Positions 44,535 to 51,780 of a stretch of DNA of 64,000 nt are shown one piece after another (position 1 is the stretch's first letter; each line of letters starts with the position of its first letter). Position numbers and translations under genes: made by a program. Location of the stretch: positions 18,327 through 82,326 of the IMG/VR virus record IMGVR_UViG_3300032304_001768; one strand, given 5' to 3'. Under the pieces are notes generated by a model. The model saw only the letters and a list, made by a program, of their open reading frames with translations. It did not search any database and was not told the DNA's origin. Origin of the DNA: a virus.

Positions 44535-44658
44535 GTGCTGTAGAATAGAGATACTTCTAAAAGGAAAATCGGTATCGAAAGATGTGTGGGTTCGAATCCC
44601 ACTCAGGCTCAATAAGTGGTCTGATGGCGGAATGGTAGACGCGCTGATAATAAAAAGC
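44535..44658 (+). tRNA. Possible circularly permuted class II tRNA (3' half before 5' half)
   Basis: A 3' half (about 44569-44609: ATCGG, variable hairpin ATC-GAAA-GAT, T-arm GTGGG TTCGAAT CCCAC, acceptor TCAGGCT) is followed after 8 nt by a 5' half (44618 onward: acceptor GGTCTGA, D-arm GCG-loop-CGC, CTGAT). The halves pair with each other over 7 acceptor and 5 anticodon-stem positions. No T33 is identifiable, so activity is uncertain; tandem duplication with deletions is an alternative. Confidence 0.4.
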
Positions 44659-44684
44659 CTCTGTTCGTTTGTTGCCTTGTTAAT

Positions 44685-46720: not shown

Positions 46721-46750
46721 AATAATTGGAGATTTTATTTGGTATCCAAC

Positions 46751-46756
46751 TAAATA
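46751..46756 (+). promoter_or_regulatory. Late promoter -10 box TAAATA
   Basis: Ends 5 nt before the HNH gene ATG at 46762. Confidence 0.65.
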
Positions 46757-46761
46757 ATAGT

Positions 46762-47424
46762 ATGGATACCTTAGAAAAAATATCAAAAGAAGATGCGAAG
46801 ATATTAAAGCAAAAATGGTATTTTACTGGATTGGAATGTTCAAATGGCCACTTAGATAAAAGATATACAAACACAGGCATATGTTATGGGTGTAAGCGTT
46901 CACAGAATAACAGATCTAATGCAAAAAATCCAGAAACTTTAAAAGTTATAAGCTCAAGAACTTATCAAAAAAATAAAGAATCTAAATTGGAACAATCTAA
47001 AAGATGGGCACAACGGAACAGAGAAAAATCTAATGCTATTAAATCTAAATGGAAACAAGTTCATAGAGAGCAACATTTGGAACAAGCAAAGAAATATTCC
47101 AAAAATCAAAGAAAAGATCCGTTCAAACGAATTAGTAAAAATATGAGTAAAGCTATATGGCAATCTTTAAAAGGAAAAAAAGGAGGTTCCCATTGGCTAT
47201 CATTTGTGGATTTTACAATTGAAGAATTAACAATTCATTTAGAAAGTAAATTCAAAGAAGGTATGACTTGGGAAAACTATGGCAAATATTGGCATGTTGA
47301 CCATATCAGACCGCTTAGTTGGTTTAATTTAGAACTTGAATTTAAAGATGCATGGTGTTTGGGAAATCTTCAACCATTAGAAGCAGTTTTAAATTTGAGA
47401 AAAAATAATAGATACGAAGGTTGA
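46762..47424 (+). CDS. HNH homing endonuclease
   Basis: About 220 residues. A Cys pair SNGH ... CYGCKR near the N-terminus, a long Lys/Arg/Gln-rich helical linker (about 45-130), then the HNH core KYWHVDHIRPLSWFNLE and CLGNLQPLEAVLNLRKNNR at the C-terminus. This type is common among phage homing nucleases. It is read from a late box and lies between tRNA-Ile/mazG and tRNA-Gly. Confidence 0.82.
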   Translation: MDTLEKISKEDAKILKQKWYFTGLECSNGHLDKRYTNTGICYGCKRSQNNRSNAKNPETLKVISSRTYQKNKESKLEQSKRWAQRNREKSNAIKSKWKQVHREQHLEQAKKYSKNQRKDPFKRISKNMSKAIWQSLKGKKGGSHWLSFVDFTIEELTIHLESKFKEGMTWENYGKYWHVDHIRPLSWFNLELEFKDAWCLGNLQPLEAVLNLRKNNRYEG

Positions 47425-47517: not shown

Positions 47518-47593
47518 CAGGGTATAGCGTAATGGCATCGCGCTTGGTTTGGGACCAAGAGATCTGTAGGTTCGAGTCCTACTATCCTGACCA
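47518..47593 (+). tRNA. tRNA-Pro (UGG), copy 1
   Basis: Acceptor CAGGGTA / TATCCTG, anticodon arm CTTGG TTTGGGA CCAAG, T-loop TTCGAGT, CCA. Confidence 0.9.
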
Positions 47594-47598
47594 TTTAT

Positions 47599-47676
47599 CT
47601 ACTGCTGGCATTGATATGGTAAGGCGCTTGATTTGGGATCAAGAGTATGTCGGTTCGAATCCGACGCAGTAGACCA
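47599..47676 (+). tRNA. tRNA-Pro (UGG), copy 2
   Basis: Acceptor CTACTGC / GCAGTAG, anticodon arm CTTGA TTTGGGA TCAAG, CCA. Nearly identical to copy 4 (one base in the T-stem). Confidence 0.9.
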
Positions 47677-47681
47677 TTTAT

Positions 47682-47927
47682 ATGAAAATTGCATTTAGAA
47701 GTTCATTATCAAGACTGGACATGGAATATGATTCAGATAATTTTGACAATTTTGAAGAGAAGTGTTTCTGGCAAGCATTAAAAGTGGAGTATTGGAAGGA
47801 GTTGTTTGAAAATTGCGGTAATGTTCATCCATTTCGATCCGCGTTTGCTCAACGGTTTTCTTTGGAAAAAAGAAAGTTTGAAACATTAATTCAAGCGAAT
47901 AAGTATTTTAATACTAAACTGAAATAA
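47682..47927 (+). CDS. Hypothetical protein in the tRNA cluster
   Basis: An 81-residue, helical, Phe/Lys/Glu-rich protein (FEEKCFWQALKVEYWKELFE). It starts 5 nt after the CCA of tRNA-Pro copy 2 and separates the two tRNA-Pro pairs. Unrecognised; no promoter of its own is evident. Confidence 0.5.
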   Translation: MKIAFRSSLSRLDMEYDSDNFDNFEEKCFWQALKVEYWKELFENCGNVHPFRSAFAQRFSLEKRKFETLIQANKYFNTKLK

Positions 47928-47960
47928 GAATTTATATACCTAGCGTTAACTTAAAACGAT

Positions 47961-47999
47961 ACTGATGAAAGCCGTGCTTCGACATCAGAGAGTGACGGC
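47961..47999 (+). ncRNA. Second pseudoknot-like structured element
   Basis: CTGATG pairs with CATCAG and, interleaved, GCCGT with ACGGC (A-B-A'-B'). A short hairpin CGTT/AACG lies just upstream. Same architecture as the element at 45064, different sequence. Confidence 0.35.
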
Positions 48000-48024
48000 G
48001 GGAGAGAACGCGCCAATTTCATAA

Positions 48025-48099
48025 CAGGGTGTGGCTTGACAGGGAAGCGCTTAGTTTGGGGCTAAGATCATGGAGGTTCGAATCCTCTCATCCTGACCA
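48025..48099 (+). tRNA. tRNA-Pro (UGG), copy 3
   Basis: Acceptor CAGGGTG / CATCCTG, anticodon arm CTTAG TTTGGGG CTAAG, T-arm GGAGG TTCGAAT CCTCT, CCA. Diverged relative of copy 1. Confidence 0.88.
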
Positions 48100-48104
48100 T
48101 TTAT

Positions 48105-48182
48105 CTACTGCTGGCATTGATATGGTAAGGCGCTTGATTTGGGATCAAGAGTATGTTGGTTCGAATCCGACGCAGTAGACCA
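48105..48182 (+). tRNA. tRNA-Pro (UGG), copy 4
   Basis: Differs from copy 2 by one base (T-stem GTTGG instead of GTCGG), showing a recent duplication of a two-tRNA unit. Confidence 0.9.
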
Positions 48183-48358: not shown

Positions 48359-48418
48359 ACAGTATTCGTCTAATGGCTTAAGACTACTCCCTCCAAAAGA
48401 GAAAACGTGGGTTCGAAT
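48359..48418 (+). pseudogene. tRNA-Trp-like 5' fragment, cut in the T-loop
   Basis: ACAGTAT start, D-arm-like region, loop CTCCAAA (CCA anticodon) on a weak stem, then GTGGG TTCGAAT and an abrupt end. The 3' T-stem and acceptor are absent; an HNH gene follows. Confidence 0.5.
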
Positions 48419-48428
48419 ATCATTTATG

Positions 48429-48434
48429 TAAATA
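48429..48434 (+). promoter_or_regulatory. Late promoter -10 box TAAATA
   Basis: Ends 5 nt before the HNH gene ATG at 48440. Confidence 0.65.
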
Positions 48435-48439
48435 CTTTC

Positions 48440-49138
48440 ATGGACTACAAAACTATATATGACAATTTAATTAAACATAGACAGGAACATCCAGCTGAAG
48501 GATATACCGAACAGCATCATATAGTCATGCGCAGTATGGGCGGAAGTAATGAATCATCAAATCTTGTTTCTTTAACTGGTCGCGAACATTGGATTGCTCA
48601 TTTACTCTTATACAAGATTCATCGAAATAAGTTATCAGCCTATGCTTGCCATATGATGGCAATGAAATGTGAAAAACGTGGCATACCACATGTTCGTAAT
48701 TCTCGAATGTATGAAAAAATAAGAATATTATGTTCTAAACATATTGGTATAAATAATACACATACTCAAACAGGGGTGAAAAATTCTCAATACGGAACGC
48801 GGTGGATATGCAATATTCTTTTGCAGCAAAATCAAAAAATTTCTAAAGATGTGGAATTACCTGATGGATGGATCGTCGGTCGAAATAAATGGATAGATCA
48901 TAGCGTAACGCTTAGTTGTGTGACATGTAAATCAACATTCAAAACGTTGAATGTGAGATCTAAATATTGTTCGCGAACGTGTTATCCACCTCGCAAGCCC
49001 ATGAAAGTCTCTTACGAGACCAGACAAAAAATGTCTATCATTAAGAAAGAATTATATAAAGATCCAACACGTAATCCAAATTACGGAAAATTTAAAAATA
49101 AAAAAACACAGTTGCAGCAAGTGGCGGTTGCAGAATGA
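48440..49138 (+). CDS. HNH homing endonuclease whose end overlaps tRNA-Trp
   Basis: About 232 residues: YTEQHHIVMRSMGGSNESSN and LTGREHWIAHLLLYKIHRNK form the HNH core (H-H, N, H), followed by a zinc-ribbon-like CVTCKSTFKTLN ... YCSRTCY and a NUMOD-like C-terminal helix ETRQKMSIIKKEL. The last ten codons (TQLQQVAVAE) lie inside the 5' half of the tRNA-Trp gene at 49108, so gene and tRNA share sequence. Confidence 0.82.
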   Translation: MDYKTIYDNLIKHRQEHPAEGYTEQHHIVMRSMGGSNESSNLVSLTGREHWIAHLLLYKIHRNKLSAYACHMMAMKCEKRGIPHVRNSRMYEKIRILCSKHIGINNTHTQTGVKNSQYGTRWICNILLQQNQKISKDVELPDGWIVGRNKWIDHSVTLSCVTCKSTFKTLNVRSKYCSRTCYPPRKPMKVSYETRQKMSIIKKELYKDPTRNPNYGKFKNKKTQLQQVAVAE

Positions 49139-49357: not shown

Positions 49358-49447
49358 TTTAAGTTTATATCGGCATGTGGAGAAATTGGCAGTCTCGGCA
49401 GACTTTAAAGTTTAAATTTATCCTCATGTAGCAATCTAGTTGAGGGG

Positions 49448-49476
49448 TTGACAAACAATTCCTATGCTACTAAATA
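49448..49476 (+). promoter_or_regulatory. Hybrid early/late promoter inside the split tRNA
   Basis: TTGACA, 17-nt spacer, TAAATA, 5 nt to the HNH gene ATG at 49482. The spacer region can also pair as GTAGCA / TGCTAC. Confidence 0.6.
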
Positions 49477-49481
49477 ATAAC

Positions 49482-50276
49482 ATGTCTGCAAAATTAAGAA
49501 AGTATACCAAAGAATTTTTAGAACCTAAAGTTAAAGAAGTCACATCAATGACTGCTTTAATAGAAAGCATAGGGCTTAAACTTACTGGAGGCAGTTATCG
49601 ACTGTTAAAACAAAGAATAAATCAACATGGAATATCCATAGATCATTTTATTGGACATGGTTGGTCGAAAGGATTAACTAAAGAAACATCAGATACATTA
49701 AATAAAAATTCTCTTAAAACGAGGACGCCCCATGAAAAAGTTTTTTGTATAAATTCCGGGTTTAATTCTAGTAAATTAAAATATAGATTATTAGATCTTG
49801 GTTGGGAAGACAAATGCAATATTTGTGGATTGAAGGACTGGCTAGGTAATCCTATTACTTTACATGTTGATCATATAAATGGAATATCCGGAGATAATAG
49901 ATTGGAAAATTTGCAAATAATTTGTCCCAACTGCCATCAACAAACAGAAACATGGGGTAATAAAAAAGACAAGGGGAGTATGGTGAAATTGCTAAACACG
50001 CCAGACTTAGGATCTGGTGCCGAAGGGCTTGTCGGTTGGAGTCTGACTACTCCCACCAAAAAATGTATAGACTGTGATAAAAAATGCTCTTGTAATGCTA
50101 CAAGATGTAAATCTTGCGAAGCTATTAGAAAAAACAATAATATAAAAAAAAGAGTTTCTAAAGAACAATTAATTTTAGATTTAAAAGATTTAAAAACATA
50201 TGTTGAAATATCTAAAAAATATAATGTATCTGATGTATCCATTAAAAAATGGTGTAAATTTTATAATCTAGTTTAA
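49482..50276 (+). CDS. HNH endonuclease containing a tRNA-Leu gene in frame
   Basis: About 264 residues. The HNH core is CNICGLKDWLGNPITLHVDH, then INGISGDNRLENLQIICPNC. A helical domain precedes it, and a C-terminal zinc ribbon (KKCIDCDKKCSC, RCKSCEA) plus a helix-turn-helix-like YVEISKKYNVSDVSIKKWC follows. Codons for about residues 165-193 coincide with the complete tRNA-Leu(UAG) gene at 49974-50058, read without a stop. The protein is therefore presumably interrupted by about 29 tRNA-derived residues between nuclease and zinc ribbon. Confidence 0.78.
   Translation: MSAKLRKYTKEFLEPKVKEVTSMTALIESIGLKLTGGSYRLLKQRINQHGISIDHFIGHGWSKGLTKETSDTLNKNSLKTRTPHEKVFCINSGFNSSKLKYRLLDLGWEDKCNICGLKDWLGNPITLHVDHINGISGDNRLENLQIICPNCHQQTETWGNKKDKGSMVKLLNTPDLGSGAEGLVGWSLTTPTKKCIDCDKKCSCNATRCKSCEAIRKNNNIKKRVSKEQLILDLKDLKTYVEISKKYNVSDVSIKKWCKFYNLV
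49974..50058 (+). tRNA. tRNA-Leu (UAG), nested in the HNH gene
   Basis: Acceptor GGGAGTA / TACTCCC, anticodon arm CCAGA CTTAGGA TCTGG, class II variable arm, T-arm GTCGG TTGGAGT CTGAC, A73, encoded CCA. A well-formed tRNA entirely within protein-coding sequence. Confidence 0.9.
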
Positions 50277-50338
50277 ACAAAAGAATCTGTTGCTTAATCG
50301 CGTGTGGGTTCGAGTCCCACCATGCCGACCATTTAGAT

Positions 50339-50344
50339 TAAATA
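50339..50344 (+). promoter_or_regulatory. Late promoter -10 box TAAATA
   Basis: Ends 5 nt before the ATG at 50350. Confidence 0.7.
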
Positions 50345-50349
50345 GTTTT

Positions 50350-51155
50350 ATGTTAAACTTTAAACAATTCTTCTTCGAACGTGCATTCCACGGTTCACCA
50401 AACGAGGTGGCTGGAGATTTCAATCTGGATTATATTGGAACTGGCGAAGGTGGACAAGCTTTTGGTTGGGGATTGTATTTTGCAGAAAACCCTAAAGTTG
50501 CTGAAACGTATAAAAATTTACATCCATACTCTCAGAGAGAAGTTCGATACAAAGGAAAAACTCCGAGAGAATGGGAAGATGTTAGTGATGGAACGAGCAA
50601 TATGTTTGGGAGAAGATTAGACTGAATGTTTCAAAAGAAGATTTATTAAATTATCCATTGTCCAAACAACAGCTTGATTTGGTGAAATCACTTCCTGATG
50701 AATTGTTTCATAAAGGTAATATGTATGAAGTTAACATTGATGCATCCATAGATGATTTCATTCATTACGATGGATCAGAATCTGAATATGATCCAATCTT
50801 AAAAAAGATCAATGATGGAATCAAAAGATTCTATCATTATGATGAAGGTAATTATTTTCAAGGAACATACGATGGAAAATCCATTTATCCAAAGGTGTGT
50901 AAAGTGGTTGCAGATTTTGAAAATAATTTAGAACAGTTTGGATCACAACCCACCAAAAATGAACAGATATTAGGAAGTAAATTCCTAGCAAAAGTGGGAG
51001 TCAAAGGAATTCGATATTTAGATGAGCTATCCAGATCATCTGGACAAGGCACTTATAACTATGTTATATTTGATCCATCTATTATTAAAATAGTGAAAAC
51101 GAACGGTCAGTTTGTGATGCCTTCCAAGAAACCAGAATCTGTCGAAATCGATTGA
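50350..51155 (+). pseudogene. ADP-ribosyltransferase-like effector (ART-PolyVal type), frameshifted
   Basis: The first frame (50350-50625, 91 residues) starts with a capsid-targeting-like MLNFKQFFFERAFHGS and continues IGTGEGGQAFGWGLYFAENP, the H-G-S and G-x-G-x-Y-F signature of ADP-ribosyltransferases found in phage polyvalent proteins. The second frame, open from 50589 and best joined near 50620, carries RLNVSKEDLL, LPDELFHKGNMYEVNID and the C-terminal KGIRYLDELSRSSGQGTYNY, which completes that family. A -1 shift between 50589 and 50625 restores one protein of about 265 residues. Programmed shift, mutation or sequencing error are all possible. Confidence 0.65.
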
Positions 51156-51179
51156 CAAATCGAAATCGTGTGTTACTCT
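51152..51179 (+). promoter_or_regulatory. Sigma70-type promoter, extended -10
   Basis: TTGACA, 16-nt spacer, TACTCT preceded by TGT; drives the second part of the tRNA cluster. Confidence 0.65.
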
Positions 51180-51228
51180 AAACACGTAATTGGCCATGTG
51201 GCGGATGAAAATTGAAAAATCAAGAAAA

Positions 51229-51696: not shown

Positions 51697-51780
51697 GGGG
51701 AAATGGTGGAATGGTATACACGGTAATCTCAAAAATTGTTGCTTAACAGCATGCGGGTTCGAGTCCCGCTTTCCCCACCA
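51697..51780 (+). tRNA. tRNA-Leu (CAA)
   Basis: Acceptor GGGGAAA / TTTCCCC, anticodon loop CTCAAAA on stem GTAAT / ATTGT, variable arm TGCT-TAAC-AGCA, T-arm GCGGG TTCGAGT CCCGC, CCA. Confidence 0.9.

What the first reader, a model, noticed from the sequence alone, without database searches (positions are those of the whole stretch)
49974..50058. Complete tRNA-Leu(UAG) nested in frame inside a protein gene
A well-formed tRNA lies on the coding strand of the HNH gene between nuclease core and zinc ribbon, read through as about 29 codons without a stop. The same DNA thus encodes a tRNA and part of a protein. tRNA processing would destroy the mRNA, so expression of the two must compete.
Basis: seen in the sequence. 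Interest (0 to 1): 0.8.

Follow-up and report, generated by a model that had tools for sequence, protein, structure and literature searches.

The report
Homing gene carrying a replacement tRNA
A selfish DNA-cutting gene sits inside, and so breaks, a phage's leucine tRNA gene, but carries a complete spare copy of that same tRNA in the middle of its own protein-coding sequence, so one stretch of DNA appears to serve both as part of a protein and as a tRNA.

Summary
A complete tRNA-Leu(UAG) (49974-50058) lies in frame inside an HNH endonuclease gene, between nuclease core and zinc-ribbon/HTH domain. So it is a tRNA inside an HNH gene inside a tRNA. The 876-nt insert shows no group I intron. This HNH family usually lies in phage tRNA arrays: 40 of 94 distinct homologues end within 10 nt of, or inside, a tRNA gene, tRNA-Leu enriched about threefold, starting at the same point just after the HNH core. 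Some lie in group I introns at the same anticodon-loop site. Enterococcus phages show the process: EFDG1 has the 5' half of one tRNA-Leu(UAG) allele, then HNH, then a complete tRNA-Leu(UAG) of another allele; relatives carry either allele intact without HNH. Best explanation: an intron-less homing cassette that destroys tRNA-Leu(UAG) and brings its own replacement. The window is the only one of 58 full-length HNH-HTH genes with the tRNA between the domains. Activity, tRNA maturation and the proposed expression conflict are untested.

The parts
49371..49405 (+). 5' half of the interrupted outer tRNA-Leu(UAG), up to U34
   Evidence: ARAGORN with introns; best join reading UAG scores 121.4; joined anticodon arm found intact in 17 contigs
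49406..50281 (+). 876-nt insert between U34 and A35 of the outer tRNA
   Evidence: join analysis; no intron family matches at E<=5
49470..49476 (+). CTAAATA, T4-like late promoter motif of this phage, 5 nt before the probable HNH start
   Evidence: 11 of 19 copies in the window lie 5-8 nt before an ATG of an ORF >=60 aa, permuted motifs mean 6%
49482..50276 (+). HNH endonuclease gene (264 aa + stop; longest ORF starts at 49464): N-terminal part, HNH core, tRNA-coded linker, zinc ribbon, HTH
49974..50058 (+). Complete inner tRNA-Leu(UAG) with CCA, in frame, coding residues 165-192 of the HNH protein
50061..50273 (+). Zinc ribbon (four Cys) and HTH domain of the HNH protein, after the tRNA
   Evidence: alignment, conservation, AlphaFold
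50282..50331 (+). 3' half of the interrupted outer tRNA-Leu(UAG), from A35 to CCA

Best explanation
It is an intron-less homing cassette aimed at tRNA-Leu. An HNH endonuclease of a family that recognises the tRNA-Leu anticodon region (inferred) inserted between U34 and A35 of a phage tRNA-Leu(UAG) gene. With no self-splicing intron, the insertion destroys that tRNA. The cassette carries a complete, sequence-divergent tRNA-Leu(UAG) directly behind the nuclease core, which takes over the lost function and may escape cutting. In this phage the replacement tRNA lies inside a full-length HNH gene, in frame, and serves as a flexible linker between nuclease and DNA-binding domains. Shown by sequence: both tRNAs, the exact anticodon-loop insertion, the open frame, the intact domains, the recurrence of HNH-core/tRNA-Leu junctions, and allele replacement in Enterococcus phages. 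Inferred: cleavage of tRNA-Leu DNA, function of the inner tRNA, resistance of the inner tRNA gene to cutting, late expression of the HNH.
For: Outer tRNA-Leu(UAG) rejoins exactly; its anticodon arm is found intact in 17 of 17 matching contigs. Inner tRNA is well formed and is the only intact tRNA-Leu(UAG) found in the 82-kb record. 40 of 94 homologues end at or in a tRNA; Leu 19/40 against 93/581, p 1e-6. tRNA-Leu starts 26-42 nt after CPNC in twelve loci including the window. Broken tRNA 5' halves precede HNH genes in at least six other loci. Related HNH genes lie in tRNA-Leu introns at the same site. EFDG1/EFGrKN against Bop and ZJGS3 show a broken resident allele, HNH, and a complete second allele. 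Close relative L105 lacks the whole block.
Against: No cleavage, expression or tRNA data. No intact version of the window's outer tRNA was found in a close relative, as L105 lacks tRNA-Leu(UAG) at this place. The inner and outer anticodon arms share their central bases, so resistance of the inner gene to cutting is not evident from sequence. The nested form is a single case from one metagenomic contig.
Confidence: 0.66

Rival explanations
1. The insert is a group I (or other) intron: the outer tRNA-Leu(UAG) is spliced and functional, the HNH is its homing enzyme and the inner tRNA is a passenger.
For: Exact insertion at U34|A35, the site of group I introns in tRNA-Leu; related HNH genes lie in such introns in L020, L120 and L135.
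Against: No intron family matches at E<=5, while ORF-free introns in L140 and L166 give 64 and 71 bits. Only 5 nt lie between HNH stop and 3' half, 76 nt before the ATG, and the insert ends in A, not the terminal G of group I introns. Rfam also missed the ORF-bearing introns of L020, L120 and L135, so its silence alone is not decisive.
Confidence: 0.08
2. A tRNA gene was pasted by chance recombination into an HNH gene that happened to stay open; neither the HNH nor the outer tRNA works any more, and no replacement logic is involved.
For: Single case of internal nesting among 58 full-length genes; recombination in this array is frequent; about 37% of tRNA-Leu frames are open anyway.
Against: The tRNA begins at the same point after the HNH core as in eleven other HNH/tRNA-Leu loci; it is the same isoacceptor as the broken outer tRNA; zinc ribbon and HTH are intact.
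Confidence: 0.2
3. The outer tRNA halves are transcribed and joined by a phage RNA repair system (T4 Rnl1/Pnkp type), so both tRNAs work.
For: A relative (G001) encodes a T4 Rnl1-type RNA ligase; the break is in the anticodon loop, where such enzymes act (established knowledge).
Against: No ligase found in the 82-kb record, which is a fragment; no known activity would trim 876 nt exactly at U34/A35.
Confidence: 0.03
4. Assembly error: the contig joins pieces of different tRNA-Leu loci.
For: One metagenomic contig; many similar tRNA sequences in the array; no reads available.
Against: The flanks match L105 at high identity up to the block; the boundaries lie exactly in the anticodon loop; the two outer halves pair with each other and not with the inner tRNA.
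Confidence: 0.03

Closest known systems
Mobile endonuclease ORFs that carry a replacement part of their target gene (Allomyces macrogynus atp6; Glomus atp6, atp9, cox2, nad3; PMC3630166)
   Same: An endonuclease gene inserts in a needed gene and brings a foreign copy of the displaced part, leaving the native part as a remnant
   Different: Protein genes of fungal mitochondria with LAGLIDADG or GIY-YIG enzymes; here a phage tRNA gene, an HNH enzyme, a whole replacement tRNA, and the replacement lies inside the enzyme's own reading frame
SegB of phages T4/T6 (GIY-YIG; PMC13096335)
   Same: Homing endonuclease in a phage tRNA array that cuts within tRNA genes and drives inheritance or amplification of tRNA genes
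   Different: Free-standing next to tRNA genes, another enzyme family, does not interrupt a tRNA or carry a tRNA in its frame
HNH genes overlapping tRNA-Leu(UAG) in Enterococcus phage EFDG1 and Pseudomonas phage PPSC2
   Same: Same HNH family, ending inside a complete tRNA-Leu(UAG); EFDG1 has the broken 5' half upstream
   Different: HNH stops within the tRNA and lacks the zinc-ribbon/HTH domain and the 3' half
Group I introns with HNH genes in phage tRNA-Leu (L020, L120, L135)
   Same: Related HNH, same insertion site in the anticodon loop
   Different: These carry a group I core; the window's insert does not

Membership tests
HNH homing endonuclease | HNH motif with conserved catalytic residues | tested here: met
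   PF01844 above cut-off, PHROG 10822 over the whole length, invariant H, N, H and Cys columns
HNH homing endonuclease | Site-specific cleavage of an uninterrupted allele | not testable with these tools
   Needs a biochemical assay
HNH homing endonuclease | Presence/absence between close relatives (mobility) | tested here: met
   Block absent in L105; Enterococcus phages with and without the HNH gene
Group I intron | Conserved catalytic core | tested here: not met
   No match at E<=5; controls L140 and L166 match; almost no non-coding room. Rfam misses ORF-split introns, a caveat
Group I intron | Last intron base is G | tested here: not met
   Insert ends ...ACAAA before AGAATCTG at the join reading UAG
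Functional tRNA-Leu(UAG) (inner) | Cloverleaf, Leu variable arm, A73, CCA | tested here: met
Functional tRNA-Leu(UAG) (inner) | Processed and charged in the cell | not testable with these tools
   Needs RNA from infected cells
Mobile ORF with replacement gene part (Allomyces/Glomus type) | Endonuclease ORF plus second, divergent copy of the target, with the native part left as remnant | tested here: met
   Outer halves and inner tRNA in the window; broken resident allele, HNH and complete second allele in EFDG1
Mobile ORF with replacement gene part (Allomyces/Glomus type) | The replacement is expressed, the remnant is not | not testable with these tools
   Needs RNA data

The most novel reading that the evidence does not exclude
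The homing gene has made itself hard to delete: the phage's only intact tRNA-Leu(UAG) lies inside its reading frame, so losing the gene loses the tRNA. Processing of the tRNA cuts the HNH message and so limits the nuclease: an addiction and self-limiting module encoded twice in the same bases.
Probability: 0.3. Interest if true: 0.78.

Novelty: new variant of a known kind. Interest (0 to 1): 0.62.

Why it matters
Homing genes are thought to need an intron, an intein or an intergenic site to be harmless. This suggests another way: break a tRNA gene and bring a spare. It would explain tRNA halves and HNH/tRNA overlaps in phage tRNA arrays, gives a testable route by which phage tRNA alleles are replaced, and shows one DNA segment read both as a structured tRNA and as a protein linker.

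Tried and rejected
Chance ORF over a tRNA: rejected, because both flanks belong to one conserved family. Group I intron: not supported (see rivals). Assembly chimera: not excluded without reads, but unlikely. Megablast of the array against phage records: no match. Exact-pattern search for the inner tRNA in other viral contigs: none. Apparent circularly permuted tRNAs in the same array looked like a possible splicing context; they turned out to be Y-RNA-like elements and do not bear on the finding. A first scan for HTH-bearing ORFs failed through a wrong motif and was repeated. The secondary structure before the HNH start is not significant (z -1.1).

Full report
Observation. ARAGORN calls tRNA-Leu(UAG) at 49974-50058 and Rfam scores it 51 bits. 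It lies in phase with ORF 49464-50276, an HNH endonuclease (PF01844; PHROG 10822 over its whole length, E 5.7e-50). The start is probably ATG 49482, since CTAAATA at 49470-49476 looks like this phage's T4-like late promoter: 11 of 19 copies lie 5-8 nt before an ATG of an ORF of 60 aa or more, against a mean of 6% for permuted motifs. The same motif precedes another HNH gene (46750) and structural genes such as the portal gene.

A second tRNA around the gene. ARAGORN with introns allowed finds a tRNA split by 876 nt around the HNH gene. Trying the joins, CTT|AGAA gives a tRNA-Leu(UAG) with the top score, 121.4; a few other joins reach the same score but do not read UAG. The joined anticodon arm GGCAGACTTAGAATCTGTTG occurs exactly in 17 other viral contigs, and all 17 are intact tRNA-Leu(UAG) genes. 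So the insertion is exact, between U34 and A35, with nothing lost. The inner tRNA is the only intact tRNA-Leu(UAG) found in the 82-kb record.

Not an intron, as far as can be told. No intron family matches even at E 5, whereas ORF-free tRNA introns in L140 and L166 give 64 and 71 bits. Related HNH genes do lie in group I introns of tRNA-Leu at the same position in L020, L120 and L135 (cores read by eye); Rfam missed those three because the ORF splits them, so the negative is not decisive alone. In the window, however, only 5 nt separate the HNH stop from the 3' half, the non-coding 5' part is 76 nt, and the last base is A.

A recurrent arrangement. Of 94 distinct homologous loci, 40 HNH genes end within 10 nt of, or inside, a same-strand tRNA, and 22 overlap it. 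tRNA-Leu makes up 19 of the 40, against 93 of 581 in the same loci (p 1e-6). The tRNA-Leu starts 26-42 nt after the CPNC motif in twelve loci, the window included: the HNH core ends and the tRNA begins at the same place. A tRNA wholly inside the HNH frame, but at its end, also occurs in L009/L019, L145 and L180. Broken tRNA 5' halves precede HNH genes in EFDG1, L009/L019, L017, L122, L164 and L167.

Allele replacement seen in isolates. Enterococcus phage ZJGS3 carries one tRNA-Leu(UAG) allele, Bop another, both without HNH here. EFDG1 has the 5' half of the ZJGS3-type allele broken in the anticodon loop, then HNH, then the complete Bop-type allele; EFGrKN is similar, with the break in the variable arm and a degraded HNH end. 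This is what homing with a replacement tRNA would leave. In the window's own close relative L105 the block 49361-51185 is absent, and a different, HNH-like gene on the other strand has replaced the 5' half of tRNA-Leu(CAA).

What is unusual in the window. Among 58 full-length HNH-HTH genes only the window has a tRNA between the domains. Natural linkers are 17-46 aa; the window's is 43 aa, or 14 without the tRNA. The domain after the tRNA keeps its four cysteines and HTH and is about as similar to homologues (34%) as they are to each other (38%). AlphaFold gives a confident core and HTH and a low-confidence stretch at residues 159-189, which is essentially the tRNA-coded part (165-192).

Mechanism. 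Best supported: an intron-less homing cassette that breaks tRNA-Leu(UAG) and supplies a substitute, here nested in the HNH frame. Shown: anatomy, recurrence, allele replacement. Inferred: cleavage, tRNA function, timing. Because HNH stop codons often lie inside the following tRNA, RNase P cutting would leave HNH messages without a stop; tRNA maturation may therefore limit HNH expression in the whole family (inference).

Known relatives. The closest parallel is the mitochondrial mobile ORFs that carry a replacement part of their target gene (PMC3630166); SegB cuts within tRNA genes in T4/T6 arrays (PMC13096335); intronless and collaborative homing are reviewed in PMC3984707. A description of phage HNH cassettes with a replacement tRNA was not found in nine searches of the open library, which lacks most subscription papers.

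Noticed in passing
window 44541-44682; L105 18201-18265, 18291-18410, 18435-18571, 19128-19261; L292-L299: RNA elements that look like circularly permuted tRNAs (T arm and acceptor 3' strand, short loop, acceptor 5' strand and D arm) inside a flanking helix with TTACTTC ... AGCTTGTTC. Rfam hints at YrlA (Y RNA, E 0.01), and 7 of 9 contigs that bear the element also encode a TROVE (Ro60) protein, so they are most likely phage Y RNAs.
   Followed up: yes
window 48359-49138: Second HNH-type homing gene: it follows a tRNA-Gly(UCC)-like gene cut off in its T loop, and its end overlaps tRNA-Trp (49108). L105 has the site without the insert, joined at a short ACACAGT repeat.
   Followed up: partly
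window 46724-47421: Endonuclease VII/HNH-like gene with its own CTAAATA motif, inserted directly before tRNA-Gly(GCC) and absent at that place in L105.
   Followed up: partly
window-wide, e.g. 19931, 33247, 46750, 49470: CTAAATA lies 5-8 nt before start codons; if it is the T4-type late promoter, late mRNAs would be leaderless or nearly so.
   Followed up: partly
L002, L004, L134, L139, L167: HNH genes end exactly 10 nt inside the following tRNA: the stop codon is formed by tRNA positions 8-10.
   Followed up: partly
L105 17415-17855, 17898-17943: HNH-like gene on the minus strand has replaced the 5' half of tRNA-Leu(CAA), which is intact in the window at 51697-51780.
   Followed up: partly
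window 50350-51155: Gene downstream of the outer 3' tRNA half looks frameshifted (two overlapping ORFs, 50290-50625 and 50658-51155) and by eye resembles an ADP-ribosyltransferase-like phage protein; absent in L105 with the rest of the block.
   Followed up: no
window 47518-48182: A pair of tRNA-Pro(UGG) genes is present twice, about 0.5 kb apart; L105 has a single tRNA-Pro(UGG) there.
   Followed up: no
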